A stretch of DNA of 64,000 bases from Chitinophagales bacterium (lineage in GTDB: Bacteria > Bacteroidota > Bacteroidia > Chitinophagales > JADIYW01). The stretch covers positions 496,001-560,000 of the forward strand of contig JAMLHI010000001.1 of NCBI GenBank assembly GCA_023957235.1. Reading direction: 5' to 3'. Of the stretch, positions 10,589 to 53,572 are shown one piece after another. The stretch's first letter is position 1. Every line of letters starts with the position of its first letter. The position numbers and the translations under genes were made by a program. The notes under the pieces were generated by a model. It searched no databases. It was given only the letters and a program-made list of their open reading frames with translations, and was not told the origin of the DNA.

Positions 10589-11034
10589 AATTATGATTTA
10601 TGAATATTTAATGATGAATTTTTAGCGATTCAACTTTTGTTTTACAGTTAAAATTGAACTTTTGATTATTTTCAAAAGTTCAATTGCATTTTCATTTAAC
10701 TCATCCAATTCATTTTGACTTATATATTCTGTTTCTTTTAGTAACTCTAACCAATAACTGGTTTCATCACATTCTTTTTGGGCTATAGCTAACTTATGAA
10801 TAAAATCTGCTTTACTTTCAGCATTTTGGGCTTCGCGAACTAAAGCTCCAATTGCAGTTCCACTTCGTAAAAGTTGTTTGCTCAATACAAACTCTCTTTT
10901 TTCCGTAGAAAGAAGCTTATATAAATTCACAATTCTAATTGCAAAAACAAAAGATTTATCAAGCAAAATATTTTCCTTTTTATTCATAATTCAAAATTTT
11001 ATATTCATCATTCATATTTCATCATTCATATTTC
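10589..11034 (-). mobile_element. Four-helix-bundle cassette A with AT-rich inverted flanks (inferred element)
   Basis: The unit is the four-helix-bundle gene plus its flanks. The left flank (10589-10620) reads like TTATGAATATTTAATGATGA, and the right flank (10988-11034) carries the inverted words ATTCATCATTCAT twice. The left flank and gene end match those of cassette B at 13964-14384 almost base for base, so the two are copies of one unit. That it moves is inference; no transposase is encoded. Confidence 0.5.
10622..10987 (-). CDS. Four helix bundle protein (23S rRNA intervening-sequence / S23, Avd-like)
   Basis: A 121-residue all-helical protein of the family first found in 23S rRNA intervening sequences and related to the Avd accessory protein of diversity-generating retroelements. 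Typical blocks are KSFVFAIRIVNLYKLL, LSKQLLRSGTAIGALVREAQ, AESKADFIHKLAIAQKECDE and SYWLELLKETEYI. The family forms pentameric barrels that bind nucleic acid; its usual role in free-standing form is unknown. The gene lies between fic and res on the same strand. A same-length broken copy lies upstream of mod, and a divergent one sits in the type I locus. Confidence 0.92.
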   Translation of the reverse strand: MNKKENILLDKSFVFAIRIVNLYKLLSTEKREFVLSKQLLRSGTAIGALVREAQNAESKADFIHKLAIAQKECDETSYWLELLKETEYISQNELDELNENAIELLKIIKSSILTVKQKLNR

Positions 11035-13963: not shown

Positions 13964-14384
13964 AATTATGATTTATGAATATTGAATGATGAATTATTAA
14001 CGATTTAAATTTTGCTTTACAATCAAAATTGAGCTTTTGATTATTTTCAATAGTACCGTTGCTTCTACATTCATACTTTCACATTTATTTTGTTTAATAT
14101 ATTCTGTTTCTTTTAGTAACTCTTACCAATAACTAGTTTCATCATATTCTTTTTGAGCAATAGCTAACTGATGAATAAAATCCGCCTAGCTCTTTATATT
14201 TTGAGCTTCATGAATGAAAATACCATTCGCAGTTCCACTTCGTAAAAGTTGTTTGCTCAAAACAAACTCCTTCTTCTCAACAGAAAGAACCTTATAGATA
14301 TTTACAATCCTAATGGCGAAATCAAAAGATTTATCAAGGAGGACATTTTTTCTTTTATTCATAATTCATAATTTTGCATTCATC
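13964..14384 (-). mobile_element. Four-helix-bundle cassette B (decayed copy) with AT-rich flanks (inferred element)
   Basis: The left flank AATTATGATTTATGAATATT (13964-13983) repeats the left flank of cassette A exactly. The interior is the dead four-helix-bundle gene, and the right flank (14363-14384) carries ATTCATAATTTTGCATTCATC. It sits directly before the mod start. Confidence 0.5.
13997..14362 (-). pseudogene. Broken four helix bundle gene, copy of the one at 10622-10987
   Basis: Read on the minus strand from the ATG at 14360-14362 it gives MNKRKNVLLDKSFDFAIRIV and then LSKQLLRSGTANGIF, followed by a TAG after EAQNIKS, ADFIHQLAIAQKEYDETSYW, a TAA, and ELLKETEYI, ending at LNR. Its length is exactly the 366 bases of the intact copy, with no net indel: only substitutions, including two in-frame stops. 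That pattern suggests loss of function after duplication rather than a sequencing error. It lies between the xre gene and mod and could still serve as the mod leader. Confidence 0.88.
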
Positions 14385-45909: not shown

Positions 45910-46379
45910 TTAAAACAATTCTCCCTTGTAGTCTTTTAGCGGGATTTCTAAATCAAGAAGTTCAACCTGAAAATTTTTCGAGGACTGAATCGGTGCAAAA
46001 AACTTACTGAATGATTTGCGGTCTTTAGTAATATAACCTTGTATATTTCTATTGAACAATTGTGCTATTAATTTACAATCATCTTTTACTATATCTCTTC
46101 CAATTTCTTTTACGAGTTCTTTATCATTCAATAAAATCGAATGAAATTCACCGGCAGTTTACCATCGAAAAAATCAAATGGAATAATTTTAACAAACTCC
46201 AAAGGCAAATTAGCAGGATCGTCTTTAACTGAGTACTCTGCAATAACAATAGTGGATAAGTAAATCTCAATTTTCTTTTCCAGAAAATATTTGAAGTAAT
46301 CTTTAGCGTTTTGATGTAAGGTGTCATTGCTTTTGAGCAATCTGATACAAAAAGAGGTGTCGAGTAAAATACTATCCAT
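45910..46379 (-). pseudogene. PIN-domain ribonuclease (VapC-like), split by a frameshift
   Basis: Two adjoining frames make one PIN domain. The first starts MDSILLDTSFCIRLLKSN at 46379 with the first catalytic Asp, then AEYS with the conserved Glu. Near 46144 the frame is lost: the direct reading is GKLPVNFIRFY and a stop. Adding one base after AAACT gives KLAGEFHSILLNDKELVKEI, then KDDCKLIAQ and YITKDRKSF with the remaining acidic residues. So one base has been deleted in this gene, or there is a sequence error. It overlaps the end of the upstream gene by eight bases, as toxin-antitoxin pairs often do. If truly frameshifted, the toxin is dead. Confidence 0.8.
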
Positions 46380-47148
46380 TTGCACCTCCTCTTATCTGTT
46401 GAAGCCATGTATCTACGTTGGGAACCTTATTCCAATTTGTCGAGGCTCGTTCAATTAACAAATCCAATTTATGTTCATCATAATTTGGATTGTAAGTGAT
46501 GTAGTCAATTAACTTTAAATCAAATGGTTTTCCATCTGCAAGGTTTTGTTTTCCCTTTGCCCTAACGCCATACACTTTAAACAGCCGTTTTTCTCCCTCT
46601 AAGAGCTGTTGCTCGGTTGCACTGACTACCAACTTGCCGTATTCTTTTGTTAATAGATGAAAATTAGGGTTGTTTCCTCCTTCTTCATTTATTTTACCAT
46701 AGAGTACAAATTCTGTCTCAATAAAAGTGGCGGCAACTTTAAAATAAGCAGTGTCTTTATTTATTTTTAAAATAGGTTCTTTTGCGGATGAACTGTAAAA
46801 TGAAATTTCAAGATTTTTTTCTGCTGCTCTCCGCTGAAACTTATCAATAATTTCAGCTCGTTTATTGTCCAGAAAATCAATGTTTCCTCTGTTCTTAATT
46901 TCGGTGCTTAACCCATTAAAAAGCAGAACTCCTGAAATTGGCAGGTAAAACAAATTACGGGCAGAACCTTCTTCAATTCTGTAGGATATGTGTGGTCTAT
47001 CAGCTTTATCACCTCTTGAAGGGTACAAAAAGGTTTCCACATCGCTGATGATTTCTTTTATCTCAGCAATGTCTATATCAATGGGTTTCATTGGCTTATT
47101 GCCGACTGTCCCATCAATTTTAACTTCTATGTAACCTTGTTCTTCCAC
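46372..47148 (-). CDS. Uncharacterised 258-residue protein paired with the PIN gene (candidate antitoxin)
   Basis: No family recognised. It starts with a GTG (the only possible start, since a stop lies four codons upstream): MEEQGYIEVKIDGTVGNKPM. It is a mixed alpha/beta, charged, soluble protein without signal or membrane segments. It contains DIAEIKEIISDVETFLYP, RIEEGSARNLFYLPI and a C-terminal YNPNYDEHKLDLLIERAS. Its stop lies eight bases inside the PIN gene, so translation is coupled. The usual VapB is about 80 residues with a ribbon-helix-helix or AbrB fold, which I do not see. An antitoxin role is therefore only suggested by position. It starts 17 bases after the orphan hsdS tail. Confidence 0.65.
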   Translation of the reverse strand: MEEQGYIEVKIDGTVGNKPMKPIDIDIAEIKEIISDVETFLYPSRGDKADRPHISYRIEEGSARNLFYLPISGVLLFNGLSTEIKNRGNIDFLDNKRAEIIDKFQRRAAEKNLEISFYSSSAKEPILKINKDTAYFKVAATFIETEFVLYGKINEEGGNNPNFHLLTKEYGKLVVSATEQQLLEGEKRLFKVYGVRAKGKQNLADGKPFDLKLIDYITYNPNYDEHKLDLLIERASTNWNKVPNVDTWLQQIRGGANG

Positions 47149-47165: not shown

Positions 47166-47243
47166 TTAAATGGCAGTTTCCACCTCCTCCTTCACTCCCC
47201 AAACCTCACCAATCTTCTCTTTTATCTTTTGCTCAAAACCTAT
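47166..47243 (-). pseudogene. Orphaned 3' end of hsdS
   Basis: Minus strand reading gives IGFEQKIKEKIGEVWGVKEE and VETAI before a stop, preceded by an in-frame stop. FEQKIKEKIGEVWG repeats the last residues of the live fused gene (FEKKIKEKIGEVWGG) with one change. The 42 bases 47196-47237 match 47666-47707 at 38 positions. The four-helix-bundle cassette lies exactly between. I read this as the original end of hsdS, cut off by the insertion. Confidence 0.8.
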
Positions 47244-47245
47244 TT

Positions 47246-47660
47246 AATTACGAATTTCAAATTTCGAATTACGATTGCTTCATTGTTATTTGAATTTTGC
47301 CAATAATTCTACAAATTTCTTCTATATCGTTGATTAGGCTGTCTGCAATTTCGTTAGTTAAGTATTCTGTTTCTTTCAAAAGTTTTATCCAATACAGAGT
47401 TTCTCTTGCTTCTTTGTAAGTAATAGAAAGTTTTGAAATAAAATCAGCTTTTGATTGTCCATCAATAGCTTCTTCTACATTTGCCCCAATTGACGTTCCA
47501 CTACGAAGAATTTGTTTAGAAAGAATAAACTCTTTCTTTTCATTTATCAAATATTTATACGCATTTACAATCCTGATGGCAAAAGCAAAACTCTTTTCTT
47601 GAATAATATTATTCGTTTTCATCGTAATTCGTAATTTCTAATTCGTAATTCGTAATTAAT
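47246..47660 (-). mobile_element. Four-helix-bundle cassette C with inverted AT-rich ends (inferred element)
   Basis: The left end ATTTCGAATTACGAT (47261-47275) mirrors the right end ATCGTAATTCGTAATTTCTA (47621-47640), with further AATTCGTAATT words up to 47660. The four-helix-bundle gene fills the space, and its stop codon lies inside the left repeat. The outer neighbours are duplicated hsdS 3' sequence. Mobility is inferred. Confidence 0.55.
47269..47622 (-). CDS. Four helix bundle protein (S23/Avd-like), third copy
   Basis: 117 residues. FAFAIRIVNAYKYLINEKKE, LSKQILRSGTSIGANVEEAI, SKADFISKLSITYKEARETL and YWIKLLKETEYLTNEIAD match the family and align along their whole length with the copy at 10622, though only about half the residues are identical. 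The start codon ATG lies in the right inverted repeat and the stop in the left, so the cassette is almost nothing but this gene. It interrupts the end of the type I specificity gene. Function unknown; binding of structured nucleic acid is plausible from the family. Confidence 0.92.
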   Translation of the reverse strand: MKTNNIIQEKSFAFAIRIVNAYKYLINEKKEFILSKQILRSGTSIGANVEEAIDGQSKADFISKLSITYKEARETLYWIKLLKETEYLTNEIADSLINDIEEICRIIGKIQITMKQS

Positions 47661-50200
47661 CACCCTCCCCAAACTTCCCCAATCTTCTCTTTTATTTTTT
47701 TCTCAAAGATTTCAATCAATCGTTTGTTGGCATTGACCAATTGCATTTCTTCTTCTATGGCTTTTACTATTTCTGTTTGCTCAATAATATCAGGAACTGG
47801 AATTGGAAACTTTCTCAATGTTGTCAGCCCGATAAATTGTTGTGCTCCACCGCTTGACATCAAACTTATGTATTCCAGTGCATTCTGTGATTTTAGATAA
47901 TACAGCAAAAAAGTATGATTGATTTTGCCAAGTGGTTTTATTAAACCAACATTTTTAATACTGAATTCTCTTTTATCATCAATTACGCAACTCATTCCTC
48001 TGTTTGCACCAATCATTGAAATAATAATATCGCCAAATTCAACATTGGAACGTTTAATTATTTTTTGATGGTCTTCTCTTGAAATAAACTGAATATCATC
48101 AAATGAAAGTCCATCTTTTGTAATGTTCTTTTGAGTTACAAATGGAATTCCGTTCTCCAAAACATATTTTGGCGAATCGTGTGTTCCGTCTCTAACATCA
48201 CACAATTGGTCAAGTTCCACCATTTCGTAATTCGTAATTGGTAATTCATAATTGATTACCGGTTTGTAGTTGTTTACTATTTGCTTGGCTCCGTCTATTA
48301 TTTTTTGGTAGCCTTCTATTTCGGCTACTATTTGCTGTTGAATAGAAAGCGGTGGGAGCGGGATTTCAAGTTCGCTAAAACTTGTTTTTGAAATTTCTTT
48401 GAATGTGCTTCCTGAAGACATTTCATTCATTTCTTCAATCCTTTCAGTAAGCACAAATGCAATATATTCTGGAATTGCTTTATCAAAATCTTGAATGATG
48501 ATGTTTTTAAATCCTTGATTGGTAGCAACAGGGATTTTGTTTATTGCTATTCTGCCAATTGTTGCTCTTGACGATACTAAAACCGATTTTGCTGGAAGCA
48601 ATTTTGCGGACGATTTTGCTAAACCTAGCTCTGAAATTTTTCTTTCTGTGTCATTAATAATCGTAATAAAGTCACTTGAGGGTAAATCTTTCAAAGTGGC
48701 CCAATGAATATTTCCATTCCAATATTCAGCTTTTTCTGAACTTGGCGTTCCGCCGCTTTCAATTTTAAAATACCGTTCATCACCTAGTTTTACTAATTCA
48801 AATTCCGTCTGAACTTTTTCAGTTTCAAAATACCTCTCCGCACTTAAAAGAATATCCTTGTTAGCGAGCACTGTCTCCTTTTCAACCAAAGTAGCCATAC
48901 TCGGCATTTCATCTAAAGGTTCATCATTAGCAATTCGTAATTTGTAATTCGTAATTACTGCCAAAGCAGTCGGCAAATCGTTTTTATCAATTTCTCTGCG
49001 TTGTGCTCCAAGGTCAAAGCCATCGTTTTCAATTTTTAAAAACAATATGTGTTGGCATTTTTTCGCTAGTTTTTTGTCTAAAATAAGAATGGAAGTTTTT
49101 ACACCACTGTAAGGTTGAAACACACCTGCCGGCAAACTAATCACCGCTATCAAACTATCCTGCACCAACATTTTCCGCAATTGCTTGTAAGCGTTTTGGC
49201 TGGTGGCTACAATGCCGTTGGGTACAACAATACCTGCTCGTCCGTTGCTGTTCAGGTGTTCGGCTATGTAGTCTGTAAACAATACTTCAGCTTTGTTGGC
49301 TTGCACGCCAAATTTTTTGTGTGGTCGTATGCCGCCTTTCGGTGTCATAAATGGCGGATTTGCCAATATCACATCAAAGGTTTCCTGCCAGCGGTCTTCA
49401 CTGCTCAAGGTGTCGTATTCGTGTATTTGCGGAGTGGCAAATCCGTGTAAATACATATTGGCCAAACTCAACCGCACCATATCGGGGCTAATATCGTAAC
49501 CCACTATGCTTTGTCCTATTTTTTTGCGTTCGCCAGGTGTTAGACCCATTACGAATTTAGAATTACGAATTGCTGCATCTTCGTCATTTTTAATTTGAAA
49601 TTCGTAATTGATTATATGTTTGTAGGCACTTAATAAGAAGCCTGCCGTACCGCAAGCTGGGTCAAGCACGGTTTCATTTTTCTGTGGGTTTACACAAGCC
49701 GTTACAAAATCAATAATATGTCGTGGCGTTCTGAATTGTCCTGCATCGCCTTGACTTCCCATTACACTCAACAGGTATTCAAAAGCATCGCCCAATTTTT
49801 CGCTGTGGCTGTATTCAAACTCGTTAATGTGTTTTAAAAACAGTTTCAGCGTGGCAGGGTCACGGTAGGGCAAGTACGCATTTTTAAATATGTTTCGGAA
49901 CAGTTCGGGAATATTCGGATTGGTGTTCAGTTTTTCCAATGCTTCACTGTAAAGCGAAAGCATATCCTGTCCGCTCAATGATGGGTCAAACAGTTTTCGC
50001 CAACCGTATTTGGCATATTCACCAGTAAAGAACTTGGCTTTGCCTTTGAATTTTTCAACGGCTTCCTTATCCATATCATCCATAAACTTATAGATAAGAG
50101 CCAGCGTAATTTGCTCAATTTGGCTTTTCGGGTCGGGCACTTTACCTACCAGCACATCACGGCAATCGTCAATATTTTTCTTTGTTATGTTGTCTAGCAT
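47660..50200 (-). CDS. Type I restriction-modification fused methyltransferase/specificity protein (HsdM-HsdS)
   Basis: An 846-residue fusion that methylates DNA and sets the target of the type I enzyme. Residues to about 460 are HsdM: an N-terminal helical domain, SAM motif I DPACGTAGFL near 180 and catalytic NPPF near 281 (gamma class). From about 470, two target-recognition domains follow: KLGDERYFKIESGGTPSSEK with the helix SIQQQIVAEIEGYQKIID, then ELDQLCDVRDGTHDSPKYV with the last helix. Three stretches encoded by AT-rich repeats are inserted in frame: INYEFQIKNDEDAAIRNSKF, ITNYKLRIANDEP and INYELPITNYEMVEL. Core motifs are intact. The gene ends early at a stop created by the cassette junction. 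Confidence 0.9.
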   Translation of the reverse strand: MLDNITKKNIDDCRDVLVGKVPDPKSQIEQITLALIYKFMDDMDKEAVEKFKGKAKFFTGEYAKYGWRKLFDPSLSGQDMLSLYSEALEKLNTNPNIPELFRNIFKNAYLPYRDPATLKLFLKHINEFEYSHSEKLGDAFEYLLSVMGSQGDAGQFRTPRHIIDFVTACVNPQKNETVLDPACGTAGFLLSAYKHIINYEFQIKNDEDAAIRNSKFVMGLTPGERKKIGQSIVGYDISPDMVRLSLANMYLHGFATPQIHEYDTLSSEDRWQETFDVILANPPFMTPKGGIRPHKKFGVQANKAEVLFTDYIAEHLNSNGRAGIVVPNGIVATSQNAYKQLRKMLVQDSLIAVISLPAGVFQPYSGVKTSILILDKKLAKKCQHILFLKIENDGFDLGAQRREIDKNDLPTALAVITNYKLRIANDEPLDEMPSMATLVEKETVLANKDILLSAERYFETEKVQTEFELVKLGDERYFKIESGGTPSSEKAEYWNGNIHWATLKDLPSSDFITIINDTERKISELGLAKSSAKLLPAKSVLVSSRATIGRIAINKIPVATNQGFKNIIIQDFDKAIPEYIAFVLTERIEEMNEMSSGSTFKEISKTSFSELEIPLPPLSIQQQIVAEIEGYQKIIDGAKQIVNNYKPVINYELPITNYEMVELDQLCDVRDGTHDSPKYVLENGIPFVTQKNITKDGLSFDDIQFISREDHQKIIKRSNVEFGDIIISMIGANRGMSCVIDDKREFSIKNVGLIKPLGKINHTFLLYYLKSQNALEYISLMSSGGAQQFIGLTTLRKFPIPVPDIIEQTEIVKAIEEEMQLVNANKRLIEIFEKKIKEKIGEVWGG
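48222..48260. repeat. AT-rich repeat block between the two recognition domains of hsdS
   Basis: ATTTCGTAATTCGTAATTGG followed by TAATTCATAATTGATTACC; it encodes INYELPITNYE on the minus strand. The words match the ends of cassette C. Confidence 0.75.
48931..48958. repeat. AT-rich repeat block between HsdM and HsdS parts
   Basis: CAATTCGTAATTTGTAATTC followed by GTAATTAC. It encodes VITNYKLRI at the methyltransferase-specificity junction. Confidence 0.75.
49548..49615. repeat. AT-rich repeat block inside the HsdM domain
   Basis: ATTACGAATTTAGAATTACG and, 20 bases on, the inverted TTTGAAATTCGTAATTGAT. It inserts INYEFQIKND...IRNSKF shortly after motif I, in a loop of the methyltransferase. 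Confidence 0.75.
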
Positions 50201-50212
50201 TGTTTTGTTATT

Positions 50213-50530
50213 GTGTCACCCCTTCGGGGTTTTTGTTGTGTTTCAATGTTTTTTTATAATCCTATCAGCCCTTCGGGCTTGTTTGTTTTATCATTGGTTT
50301 TATTTTATAATTCTGTCACCCTTTCAGGGTTTTTGTTGTGTTTCAATGTTTTTTCTATAATCCTATCAGCCCTTCGGGCTTGTTTGTTTTATCATTGGTT
50401 TTATTCTATAATCCTGTCAGCCCTTCGGGCTTTATTATAATTATGGATTTTATTAATCCCGAAGGGATGTCATAATTATAGAAAAATAAATTTCATAATC
50501 GTCATCAACCCCGAATGGGGTGACATTATG
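50213..50530. repeat. REP-like palindrome cluster next to the RAYT gene
   Basis: Seven GC-rich hairpins in AT-rich DNA. Five are in one orientation (CACCCCTTCGGGGT, CAGCCCTTCGGGCTTG, CACCCTTTCAGGGT, CAGCCCTTCGGGCTTG, CAGCCCTTCGGGCTTT). Two are inverted (AATCCCGAAGGGATGTC, CAACCCCGAATGGGGTGAC). The units from 50241 and 50341 form a 100-base tandem repeat with two hairpins each. They alternate TGTCACC-type and CTATCAGCC-type tags, as in BIME-like REP pairs, and occupy the space between hsdM/S and the transposase gene. Confidence 0.85.
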
Positions 50531-50549
50531 CAATTCCCAATTTGTCGAA

Positions 50550-51011
50550 TTATTCAATCCATTCAAACAAATATTTTTCATTGTGCTCAATTTCAAATTT
50601 TCTTAAAAATTCTACGTACTCCTCTTTAAACGTTTTCTGTTTATGGTGCTCCTCTTGATCTAAAATATAATTGTAAACATTTTCAATTTGTGAATGTGAA
50701 TACGAAAAAGCTCCATATCCCTCTTGCCATTGAAACTTTCCCTTTATCAACCTATTCTCATTAATCCATTTGCTAGAGTTGTTTTTAATATCCCTGACCA
50801 AATCAGAAACAGACATAGAAGGTCTTAATCCTATAAAAGCGTGAATATGATCAGGCATTCCATTCACAATAATTGATTTTTGTTCTTTTCCTTTAATGAT
50901 TCCTGCTATATATTTATGCAAGTCATCTTTCCAAACATTGTTTATTAAATTCTCTCTGCCTTTCACTGCAAAGACCACCTGGATATAAATTTGTGAAAAT
51001 GTTCCTGGCAT
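50550..51011 (-). CDS. REP-associated tyrosine transposase (RAYT, IS200-like Y1 family)
   Basis: A 153-residue single-strand DNA nuclease of the HUH Y1 type. The HUH motif is seen in VNGMPDHIHAFIGLRP and the catalytic tyrosine region in SQIENVYNYILDQEEHHKQ; FQWQEGYGAFSYS is the conserved strand before it. KTFKEEYVEFLRKFEIEHNE is a frequent RAYT tail. RAYTs act on REP hairpins, and a cluster of these lies right after its stop. It starts two bases after the hsdR stop, so it is embedded in the restriction operon. No full insertion sequence ends are evident; RAYTs are usually domesticated singletons. Confidence 0.92.
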   Translation of the reverse strand: MPGTFSQIYIQVVFAVKGRENLINNVWKDDLHKYIAGIIKGKEQKSIIVNGMPDHIHAFIGLRPSMSVSDLVRDIKNNSSKWINENRLIKGKFQWQEGYGAFSYSHSQIENVYNYILDQEEHHKQKTFKEEYVEFLRKFEIEHNEKYLFEWIE

Positions 51012-51013
51012 AT

Positions 51014-53572
51014 TTAAGCAGATAAAAATTTATTCAACGATACATAGGTTTTAACATAGTAGGGCAGTTTACTTTTCATTTCATCGGGCACACGGTTAAA
51101 ATCTTCCACGTTAAACGTTGGGTTGTGATACAATTCTGTAAAATCTTGTTGGTCTATAATTTCTCTTACACTTGGGTCGGTGATGTAGGCATAAAAGAAA
51201 TAGCGTAAACCTTGTAAATCGTTGATGTCGGCAACATTGTTGGTGGTGATGAATTTTTCAAATTCGTCACTCAACAAATCGTCTTTGCCTTTTATCTGAT
51301 TTCCGAAATAAATGAGTTCCAACAATTCACGCCAACCAATTTTGCGGTCAATCTTCAACGACCTGCGAAGCTTTTCCAAATCAAAATATTCTTCGGGTTT
51401 GTTGTCGTATTTCTCTTTGGCTCTTGCAGTGGCAATTTCAACATCACCCGCTTCCATCAGTTGTTTTATTTCTTCATCAGTTTTTACTTTCTCCTCAAAT
51501 TGCTGAAAAAACATTCGGTCAACTTTCATTCCTGTAAAGTCAACTTGTTGTTCGTTCCAAGTGGCAATCTTGTCATTCTCTTTGTATTCGTAACCGTCAC
51601 GCTTTGGCTTCAAGGTGTTGTCGTCAACGGTTGGAAAATCATCGCCTTGCTCAAAGTTTTTCGGCAGTTTCAATACTTGGTCGTACTGATATTTTTCTTC
51701 AAAGTATTCGCAAGTGGCAAAGAAGTCAAAGAGTTTGAAAGTGGTTTTGTCAATGGAAATGGTTTCTTCTTCTCCAAGTTCGTTCTTGAATTTATGTTCA
51801 AAGGTGTGAACACGGGTGCCACGTCCTTTTATCTGAATAAATTCAGTGGGCGAAAAAATAGGTCGCATCAAAGCCAAATTCAAAATGTTGGGACAATCCC
51901 AACCTGTAGTCATCATTCCAACAGTAACACAAACTCTTGCTTTACTGGTTTTGTATGATTCCAACATTTCGTTGCCTTTGGCAAAATTGCTAAAGCCCAA
52001 CAGTTTGTCGTTGCTGTAATCAACGGTCATTTGCTGACTGTTCTGCACGTTGGAAGTTACCTGAACGGCAAAGTCGCTTTGATACTTGCCAGGGAAATAT
52101 TGATGTGCATATTCATTGAGCAGTTGAGCCAATTTTGCAGCGTGATTTTGCGAAACAGCAAAAACCAAACTCTTTCCAAACTCTCCAGTGATTGGGTCTT
52201 TCAGTCCGTTTTCAATAAATGTTTTGCAAAATACACGGTTGGTTTCATCGCTGAAAAATTTCCGTTCAAAGTGATTTTGTTTGTATTTTACTTCTTCCAA
52301 AACATCTTCCTGCTCGATGGTGGCAACTGTAACCATTACGCCATAACCTTGCTCAGAAAGTAGTTTGGTGGTTACATCTGTTCTTGCATCCACTACAATT
52401 GGCTGTCTCAAATAACCGTCTTTAGCACCATCTACAAGCGTATAACGATAAGTTGGAATACCACTCTCACAACCGAAGGTTGTGTATGTGTCCAACAACA
52501 TTCTTCGTTCCAATTCTCTTGGGTCTTCAATATTTTCGGTGTCAAGATGTTTTAAATAGTCCTTTGGCGTGGCTGTCAACCCCAATTTGTAACCCAAGAA
52601 ATATTCAAATAAAGCACGGCTGTTTCCTCCTCCTAAAAGTCGGTGTGATTCATCTGAAATGATTAAATCAAAGTCAGTTGGTGAAAACAGTTTTTTGTAT
52701 TTGTTATTCACCATCAATGATTGAATGGTGGTAACAACAATTTCCGCTTTTCTCCAGTCGTTGCGTTTCTCCTTGTAAACAACTGTTGTCAGGTCGTTTT
52801 TAAGATAATTGGTAAAATCTTTTCTTGCTTGTTCTTCCAATTCCAAACGGTCAACCAAAAATAAAACTCGTCTTGCGTTGCCAGTTCTATAAAATAATTT
52901 AATGATTGCAGCAGATGTTAGCGTTTTGCCTGTTCCTGTTGCCATTTCCAGCAAGAAACGTTTTTTGCCTTCACTCACTGCTTTCTGAACAGCTTGTATG
53001 GCTTCAACTTGGTAATATCTTAGGAAACGAAGTTTTAAATTGAAGATTAAATCTTTCTTTTTCTGTTCGTCCTGAAATTCTGGAATTTGTTTGTAGTTCG
53101 GAAGCTGCGTTAAAACAACATAGTCGTCATTTACTTGTTCGCTAACTAATTTGCTAGGGTCGGGATTGAATTGATAATATTGTTTAATGGATTCCAATGT
53201 CGGAAACACTTGAATTTGTTCAGGATTTCCAGTTTCAATATTCCATAAGAAATGCAGTATCCCGTTGGAAAGAATTACAAACTTTACTTTCTGCGACTTG
53301 GCGTAATTTCTTGCTTGTTCTTTTCCAACCAGTGGATTCAAACTTTCTTTTTTGGCTTCTAAAACCAATACAGGATTTTGGTTTTCGTCAACCAGCAAAA
53401 AGTCAATGAAACCATTTTTGGAATGTTCAAAGTTTTCTCCTAAGTCATCCATTTTGATGGAAGATTCCAATTTAATGGTCGCTTTATCTTTGTCCGTGTC
53501 AAAGAAACGCCAGCCTGCTTCTTCAAGCAGTTTATTAATCTTAATTCTTGCCTTTGCTTCCTTTTCAGCCAT
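51014..53572 (-). CDS. hsdR: Type I restriction enzyme HsdR subunit
   Basis: The motor and nuclease subunit of the type I enzyme, 852 residues. The N-terminal nuclease domain shows IDFLLVDENQNPVLVLEAKK, the PD-(D/E)XK core. SF2 helicase motifs follow: Walker A ATGTGKTLTSAAIIK near 214, DESHR, LGLTATP, TTGWDCPNI and IKGRGTRVH. The C-terminal ~180 residues are the EcoEI-type helical domain that contacts HsdM/S. All catalytic residues are intact. It is first in the order hsdR, RAYT, hsdM/S on the minus strand, which is not the usual order, and hsdM and hsdS are fused downstream. The 520 bases upstream hold only the doubtful remnant at 53788-53982. Confidence 0.93.
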   Translation of the reverse strand: MAEKEAKARIKINKLLEEAGWRFFDTDKDKATIKLESSIKMDDLGENFEHSKNGFIDFLLVDENQNPVLVLEAKKESLNPLVGKEQARNYAKSQKVKFVILSNGILHFLWNIETGNPEQIQVFPTLESIKQYYQFNPDPSKLVSEQVNDDYVVLTQLPNYKQIPEFQDEQKKKDLIFNLKLRFLRYYQVEAIQAVQKAVSEGKKRFLLEMATGTGKTLTSAAIIKLFYRTGNARRVLFLVDRLELEEQARKDFTNYLKNDLTTVVYKEKRNDWRKAEIVVTTIQSLMVNNKYKKLFSPTDFDLIISDESHRLLGGGNSRALFEYFLGYKLGLTATPKDYLKHLDTENIEDPRELERRMLLDTYTTFGCESGIPTYRYTLVDGAKDGYLRQPIVVDARTDVTTKLLSEQGYGVMVTVATIEQEDVLEEVKYKQNHFERKFFSDETNRVFCKTFIENGLKDPITGEFGKSLVFAVSQNHAAKLAQLLNEYAHQYFPGKYQSDFAVQVTSNVQNSQQMTVDYSNDKLLGFSNFAKGNEMLESYKTSKARVCVTVGMMTTGWDCPNILNLALMRPIFSPTEFIQIKGRGTRVHTFEHKFKNELGEEETISIDKTTFKLFDFFATCEYFEEKYQYDQVLKLPKNFEQGDDFPTVDDNTLKPKRDGYEYKENDKIATWNEQQVDFTGMKVDRMFFQQFEEKVKTDEEIKQLMEAGDVEIATARAKEKYDNKPEEYFDLEKLRRSLKIDRKIGWRELLELIYFGNQIKGKDDLLSDEFEKFITTNNVADINDLQGLRYFFYAYITDPSVREIIDQQDFTELYHNPTFNVEDFNRVPDEMKSKLPYYVKTYVSLNKFLSA

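What the first reader, a model, noticed from the sequence alone, without database searches (positions are those of the whole stretch)
47166..47710. Cassette C splits the 3' end of hsdS and leaves a duplicated 42-bp end
47196-47237 and 47666-47707 agree at 38 of 42 positions and encode FEQKIKEKIGEVWG and FEKKIKEKIGEVWG. The four-helix-bundle cassette, with its inverted ends, is exactly between. The inner copy ends the live gene with a new stop; the outer copy continues VKEEVETAI, the likely ancestral C-terminus. This looks like an insertion that rebuilds the target's 3' end, as some integrating elements do. A 42-bp target duplication is too long for usual DDE elements, so recombination with another hsdS allele is an alternative.
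Basis: seen in the sequence. Interest (0 to 1): 0.78.

Follow-up and report, generated by a model that had tools for sequence, protein, structure and literature searches.

The report
S23 cassette splitting a restriction-specificity gene's end
A small gene (S23, four-helix bundle) with inverted 7-base repeat arrays on either side has lodged at the end of a DNA-restriction specificity gene, leaving that gene's old end stranded behind it; the doubled end is real, but it looks more like a scar of gene-end exchange, seen only next to such genes, than the footprint every such insertion leaves.

Summary
Two 43-bp copies (47195-47237 and 47665-47707, 39/43 identical) flank an S23/PF05635 gene (47269-47622, minus strand) that carries inverted AATTACG arrays at its ends. 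Four homologous hsdS loci without the cassette (L023, L024, L025, L027) run straight into ...VWGVKEEV-type tails. L024 also has the same next gene, so the orphan tail is the ancestral hsdS C-terminus and the cassette is an insertion.

The target-duplication reading is weaker. Of 152 S23 loci, a copy of the upstream gene's end lies behind S23 only when that gene is hsdS: 6 of 12 hsdS loci, against 0 of about 140 others. In 77 of 146 loci the next start codon is under 60 nt from the S23 stop, leaving no room for such a duplication. G430 has a related cassette in front of the same tail and next gene, but its hsdS is a half-subunit with a different end. There S23 is more diverged (dS 0.78) than its flanks (0.40-0.54).

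Best reading: exchange of an "hsdS 3' end + S23" module, with the recipient's own tail left behind. One point against it: the two copies share bases that relatives lack.

More general: about half of S23 genes sampled lie beside inverted 7-nt arrays, mostly co-directional inside operons, like 23S rRNA intervening sequences.

The parts
47660..50200 (-). fused hsdM-hsdS ORF (846 aa): N6_Mtase plus two Methylase_S stretches; ends ...FEKKIKEKIGEVWGG*
47665..47707 (-). inner copy of the 43-bp hsdS 3' end (conserved region 2, last helix)
47623..47664 (-). left (5') heptamer array of the cassette, consensus AATTACG on the minus strand; contains the hsdS stop
47269..47622 (-). S23 / 23S_rRNA_IVP four-helix-bundle gene, 117 aa; solved relative 2RLD
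   Evidence: PF05635 E 2.9e-27; 2rld E 5.6e-37
47240..47275 (-). right (3') heptamer array, inverted copy of the left array; overlaps the last codons of S23
   Evidence: inverted repeat I2, 90% over 30 nt; closes a stem of about 27 bp in the predicted RNA fold, z -4.6
47195..47237 (-). outer copy of the hsdS 3' end
47166..47195 (-). orphan tail VKEEVETAI* = ancestral hsdS C-terminus
   Evidence: continuous in L023, L024, L025, L027 and L016
46372..47148 (-). conserved neighbour (258 aa, no Pfam match) that directly follows hsdS at the empty site L024
48224..48260 (-). heptamer array in frame at the junction of hsdS conserved region 1 and target recognition domain 2 (peptide INYELPITNYE); direct repeat of 47628-47664 (84%)
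   Evidence: absent from L023/L024/L025/L027
49548..49615 (-). array - short spacer - inverted array, in frame in hsdM (mini-cassette without S23)
   Evidence: absent from L023/L024/L025/L027 and from the G430 protein

Best explanation
The element is an S23 cassette (S23 gene between inverted AATTACG heptamer arrays) that rides at the 3' end of hsdS. The current hsdS 3' end and the cassette entered this locus as one exchange module. The module joined by homology inside hsdMS on one side. On the other side it made a non-homologous join just inside the last helix of the resident hsdS. The resident's last 43 bp plus VKEEVETAI* were left stranded behind the cassette as the 'outer copy'. Shown: insertion, ancestral tail, hsdS-specificity of the tail copies. 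Inferred: the order of events, the one-sided homologous join, and gene conversion to explain bases shared by the two copies.
For: (1) Empty sites: L024 has hsdS ending ...EVWGVKEEVSEL* directly before the same 258-aa gene; L023, L025 and L027 have continuous tails. (2) A copy of the upstream gene's C-terminus behind S23 occurs in 6 of 12 hsdS-S23 loci and 0 of about 140 other S23 loci (chance 6e-8, or 1e-5 if only 4 events are counted as independent). Of about 28 hsdS loci without S23, one shows it, and that one is two half-hsdS genes in tandem. (3) The copied piece is always the local hsdS type: FEQKIKEK (window), QHKKGLMQGLFP (L063), EYKKSLEELEKMYGSLSQRAFKGEL (L171). (4) In G430, G465 and L071 the hsdS before S23 is a half-subunit whose own end differs from the tail behind S23. 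G430 and G465 share this half-subunit end plus S23 at different loci, so [hsdS end + S23] appears to travel as a unit. (5) Window against G430: S23 dS 0.78, flanking genes 0.40-0.54, so the cassettes look older than the split of the locus. (6) L028, an hsdS 3'-end fragment with its own different tail, shares two synonymous states of the inner copy (GGG, GAA).
Against: Inner and outer copies share bases (GAG, AAG, ATTGG) that G430, L016, L023 and L025 lack. That is what a fresh duplication predicts; under exchange it needs gene conversion. No donor with the inner end plus S23 and no second tail was found. Six tail-copy loci are few, and two of them (window, G430) are the same locus. All six outer copies begin within roughly the last 40-120 bp of hsdS, which a random non-homologous join would not require.
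Confidence: 0.55

Rival explanations
1. Target duplication: the S23 cassette inserted near the hsdS stop and the insertion itself copied about 40-100 bp of target, so the live gene kept its last helix and the old end was left outside.
For: The window copies share lineage-specific bases. L171 has a 110/122-nt copy and L063 a degenerate 37-nt copy, both of the local hsdS. Related cassettes seem to have arrived independently at the same hsdS end (dS).
Against: No such copies beside about 140 non-hsdS genes. In 77 of 146 loci the next start codon lies within 60 nt of the S23 stop. G430, G465 and L071 have divergent rather than matching ends on the two sides. Six of the nine codon differences in the window and L171 copies are synonymous (read from the alignments), more than expected if the outer copy had decayed freely.
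Confidence: 0.3
2. Tandem remnant: there were once two hsdS (or hsdS-S23) units in tandem, and recombination between arrays or between hsdS ends deleted all of the second except its last helix.
For: G465 has half-hsdS - S23 - CR2 tail - array - second S23. L029 has an hsdS 3' fragment, large AATTACG arrays and partial S23 copies. Arrays 48224-48260 and 47628-47664 are direct repeats. Tandem half-hsdS genes exist (L243).
Against: No locus was found with S23 followed by a longer hsdS piece of the same gene. The tails are always short.
Confidence: 0.12
3. Assembly or chance artefact.
For: None found.
Against: The contig is 637 kb and the genome is rated 100% complete. The repeat far exceeds controls and related arrangements recur in unrelated genomes.
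Confidence: 0.01

Closest known systems
23S rRNA intervening sequences (IVS) encoding S23p, e.g. Coxiella burnetii (PMC4990558)
   Same: One S23p gene enclosed by terminal inverted repeats that pair into a stem of about 28 bp. In Coxiella, tandem 7-nt repeats (GACAGAT) also stand just before the S23p start (PMC4990558).
   Different: This cassette sits between protein genes in an operon, not in 23S rRNA. Its termini are AATTACG arrays. Excision of the RNA by RNase III is untested.
Type I restriction hsdS variation by recombination (PMC7394358, title and abstract only)
   Same: hsdS genes exchange specificity regions by recombination.
   Different: Here only a 23-codon remnant of a second hsdS end remains, separated by an S23 cassette. 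No second hsdS gene or recombinase was found beside it.
Heptamer arrays TAACTGA in Beggiatoaceae, Cyanobacteria and Bacteroidetes (PMC4679880)
   Same: Tandem 7-nt arrays, mostly intergenic and near start codons, sometimes translated, of unknown mobility.
   Different: That paper's main text does not contain '23S', 'intervening' or 'four helix'. Here the arrays flank S23 in inverted orientation.
Avd-type four-helix bundle proteins of diversity-generating retroelements (from memory)
   Same: Same protein fold class, homopentameric (from memory).
   Different: No reverse transcriptase or template repeat was looked for or seen in the cassette.

Membership tests
23S rRNA IVS (S23p type) | contains an S23p/PF05635 gene | tested here: met
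   PF05635 E 2.9e-27, over cut-off; 2RLD relative
23S rRNA IVS (S23p type) | terminal inverted repeats able to pair in RNA | tested here: met
   30-nt arms 90% complementary; fold z -4.6, arms paired
23S rRNA IVS (S23p type) | located inside a 23S rRNA gene | tested here: not met
   lies between hsdS and a 258-aa protein gene
23S rRNA IVS (S23p type) | excised from the transcript by RNase III | not testable with these tools
   needs RNA mapping
DDE-type insertion sequence | encodes a transposase | tested here: not met
   the only gene in the cassette is S23
DDE-type insertion sequence | short fixed-length target duplication at each site | tested here: not met
   no general flanking duplication in 144 loci; no room for a 42-bp one in 77 of 146; duplications of a few bp were not tested for
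Type I restriction-modification hsdS | Methylase_S domains next to N6_Mtase and an hsdR helicase gene | tested here: met
   PF01420 and PF02384 in one ORF; the 852-aa ORF upstream (51014-53572) reads as hsdR by its sequence, not scanned against Pfam
Diversity-generating retroelement accessory (Avd) | adjacent reverse transcriptase and template/variable repeats | not tested
   no reverse transcriptase search was run

The most novel reading that the evidence does not exclude
S23 cassettes bounded by inverted 7-nt arrays are a widespread mobile family, the protein-operon counterpart of 23S rRNA intervening sequences. They insert in sense orientation between genes, recognise or spread their own heptamer, and, when they land in hsdS, copy and rebuild the target's 3' end so that both flanking genes survive.
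Probability: 0.25. Interest if true: 0.75.

Novelty: new variant of a known kind. Interest (0 to 1): 0.52.

Why it matters
S23 'four helix bundle' genes occur in 82% of the sampled genomes of this order, and their function is unknown. Here one is caught with an empty-site comparison, defined ends and an ancestral gene tail, which makes its movement testable. The finding also ties S23 to the 7-nt tandem arrays seen in these genomes and even translated inside proteins, and to variation at restriction-specificity genes.

Tried and rejected
General target duplication was tested at DNA level and protein level. The only other long DNA repeats around S23 were arrays, minisatellites or partial S23 copies (L043, L089, L029), so these were not counted.

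A shared-insertion argument with G430 was first accepted because S23, array, tail and neighbour are collinear at 89% over 1737 bp. It was then weakened: L171 has a similar right array at another hsdS, and S23 is more diverged than its flanks.

Assigning inner and outer copies to different allele clades was tried; diagnostic positions gave a mixed answer.

No paper describing S23 cassettes with heptamer ends in operons was found in the held library.

Full report
OBSERVATION. The direct repeat is real: 47195-47237 and 47665-47707, 43 nt, 39 identical. The two copies flank an S23 (PF05635) gene at 47269-47622 on the minus strand. The gene is bounded by arrays with a 7-nt period, AATTACG-type, in inverted orientation. 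The inner copy ends the 846-aa hsdM-hsdS ORF with VWGG*; the outer copy continues VKEEVETAI*. In a test of 144 S23 loci with arrays masked, the repeat scored 33.0 against a control maximum of 14.5.

EMPTY SITES. A genome-wide search for the hsdS end returned L023, L024 and L025, 93-95% identical over the second target recognition domain and running through the orphan tail. L024 (Bacteroidetes bacterium UKL13-3, CP012155.1) has ...FEQKIKTKIGEVWGVKEEVSEL*, then directly the same 258-aa neighbour and PIN gene, without S23. L023 and L025 end VKEEVETV*, L027 VKVEVETV*. L016 (G135) has lost most of hsdS but keeps ...FEQKIKDKISGVWGVKEEVKTAI* directly before the neighbour. The cassette is therefore an insertion relative to these, and the outer piece is the ancestral C-terminus.

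SAME LOCUS, OTHER hsdS. The closest S23 found (L169, G430, 88% aa) lies before the same neighbour, with the same tail behind it...NKRLIEIFEQKIKDKISEVWGVKEEVETAI*. The tail starts 24 nt further upstream, and the hsdS in front is a half-subunit ending ...NYKLKITKKQNQIKSAVSKVWGI. G465 (L170) has the same half-subunit end and S23, then a tail FEQKIKDKISEVWGVETITN* and a second S23. L071 has a similar layout. Between window and G430, S23 has dS 0.78 while the flanking genes have 0.40-0.54, so the cassettes probably separated before the locus did; S23 is short (117 codons), so this is suggestive, not conclusive.

IS THE DUPLICATION A PROPERTY OF S23 INSERTION? S23 loci from three family or protein searches were oriented with an HMM. 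A copy of the last 60 residues of the upstream gene was sought behind S23. Genuine copies appear in six loci: window, L063, L071, L169, L170, L171. All have hsdS upstream. L063 and L170 score at the control's 99% level only; they are accepted because the matching piece is the end of the same gene type in frame order. A seventh high score, L174, reflects translated array repeats. By homology to seeds, 12 upstream genes are hsdS; Pfam counted 8 Methylase_S among the 126 upstream genes of the first sample. The chance that all six fall on hsdS is 6e-8, or 1e-5 with four events. hsdS genes without S23 show one case in about 28, a pair of tandem half-genes. In 77 of 146 loci the next ATG lies within 60 nt of the S23 stop, too near for array plus duplication. 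The pieces are of local origin: L171 carries a 110/122-nt copy of a different hsdS type, L063 a degenerate copy of a third type.

READING. Exchange of an hsdS end together with its S23 cassette, with a non-homologous join just inside the resident hsdS, explains why only hsdS shows tails, why the ends on the two sides can be very different (G430, G465, L071), why S23 is older than the flanks, and why the differences between copies are mostly synonymous (3 of 4 in the window). Duplication on insertion explains better why the window copies share GAG, AAG and ATTGG that G430, L016, L023 and L025 lack. I put exchange at 0.55, duplication on insertion at 0.30 and tandem remnant at 0.12. The join mechanism is inferred.

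WHAT THE CASSETTE IS. Of 148 S23 genes, 73 have a 7-nt-period array in the 150 nt upstream and 60 in the 150 nt downstream. Regions 300-450 nt away show 1 of 143, and only lags 7, 14 and 21 stand out. Upstream arrays are reverse complements of downstream ones (5.98 of 7 matches; shuffled mean 4.38, maximum 4.64). Heptamer similarity rises with S23 identity, from 4% of pairs sharing at least 6 of 7 below 25% identity to 77% above 75%. S23 is co-directional with both neighbours in 112 loci and opposed to both in 6. The cassette RNA folds with its arrays paired, z -4.6. The 23S rRNA intervening sequence of Coxiella has the same plan: S23p, a 28-bp terminal stem and heptameric repeats before the start codon (PMC4990558). 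This cassette works like an IVS in plan but is not filed as one, because it is not in 23S rRNA and RNA excision is untested.

LIMITS. The sampled S23 loci were chosen by match strength and are not independent. The PF05635 searches were within one order, the S23-protein search also within one class. Host names of G genomes are hidden. Neighbour genes were called by longest ORF. Paper searches cover only the held open-access library.

Noticed in passing
window 10661-10975 and 14036-14347 (L004, L006), and G000 C14/C15 (L001, L002, L005): The genome has six S23 genes, most with 7-nt-period ends of differing sequence; L006 has internal stops. L001 sits between an hsdS and an ORF that reads as hsdR, with a 21-nt unit repeated about ten times inside that hsdS.
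   Followed up: partly
window 49548-49615, 48932-48956, 48224-48260: Heptamer arrays translated in frame inside hsdM and hsdS as NYELxITNYE-like peptides at variable linkers; relatives L023, L024, L025 and L027 lack them. The hsdM one is array-spacer-inverted array, like an S23 cassette without S23.
   Followed up: partly
window 50205-51013: IS200-like Y1 transposase gene (PF01797) in a stretch that looks like an exact insert between the upstream 852-aa (hsdR-like) ORF and hsdM; L023 and L025 are empty sites with a 3-bp overlap.
   Followed up: partly
window 45910-46385: The PIN-domain gene after the 258-aa neighbour is split into two frames here, whereas L016 and L017 carry one intact ORF of 156-158 aa.
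   Followed up: no
L064, L066, L130, L131, L175, L179: S23 cassettes sit in the same gap between an HlyD-type membrane fusion gene and an RND-type transporter gene in several genomes, some in different families.
   Followed up: no
L029 4200-5300: hsdS 3' fragment, long AATTACG arrays, one full S23 (80% DNA identity to cassette C) and two partial S23 3' ends next to a valS-like gene: cassettes seem to multiply and decay locally.
   Followed up: partly
S23 loci: Very strong sense orientation of S23 relative to both neighbours (112 against 6); the array often supplies the stop codon of the upstream gene.
   Followed up: partly
literature: TAACTGA heptamer arrays in Beggiatoaceae, Cyanobacteria and Bacteroidetes (PMC4679880) may be relics of S23-type cassettes; S23 relatives were found on many cyanobacterial plasmids.
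   Followed up: no
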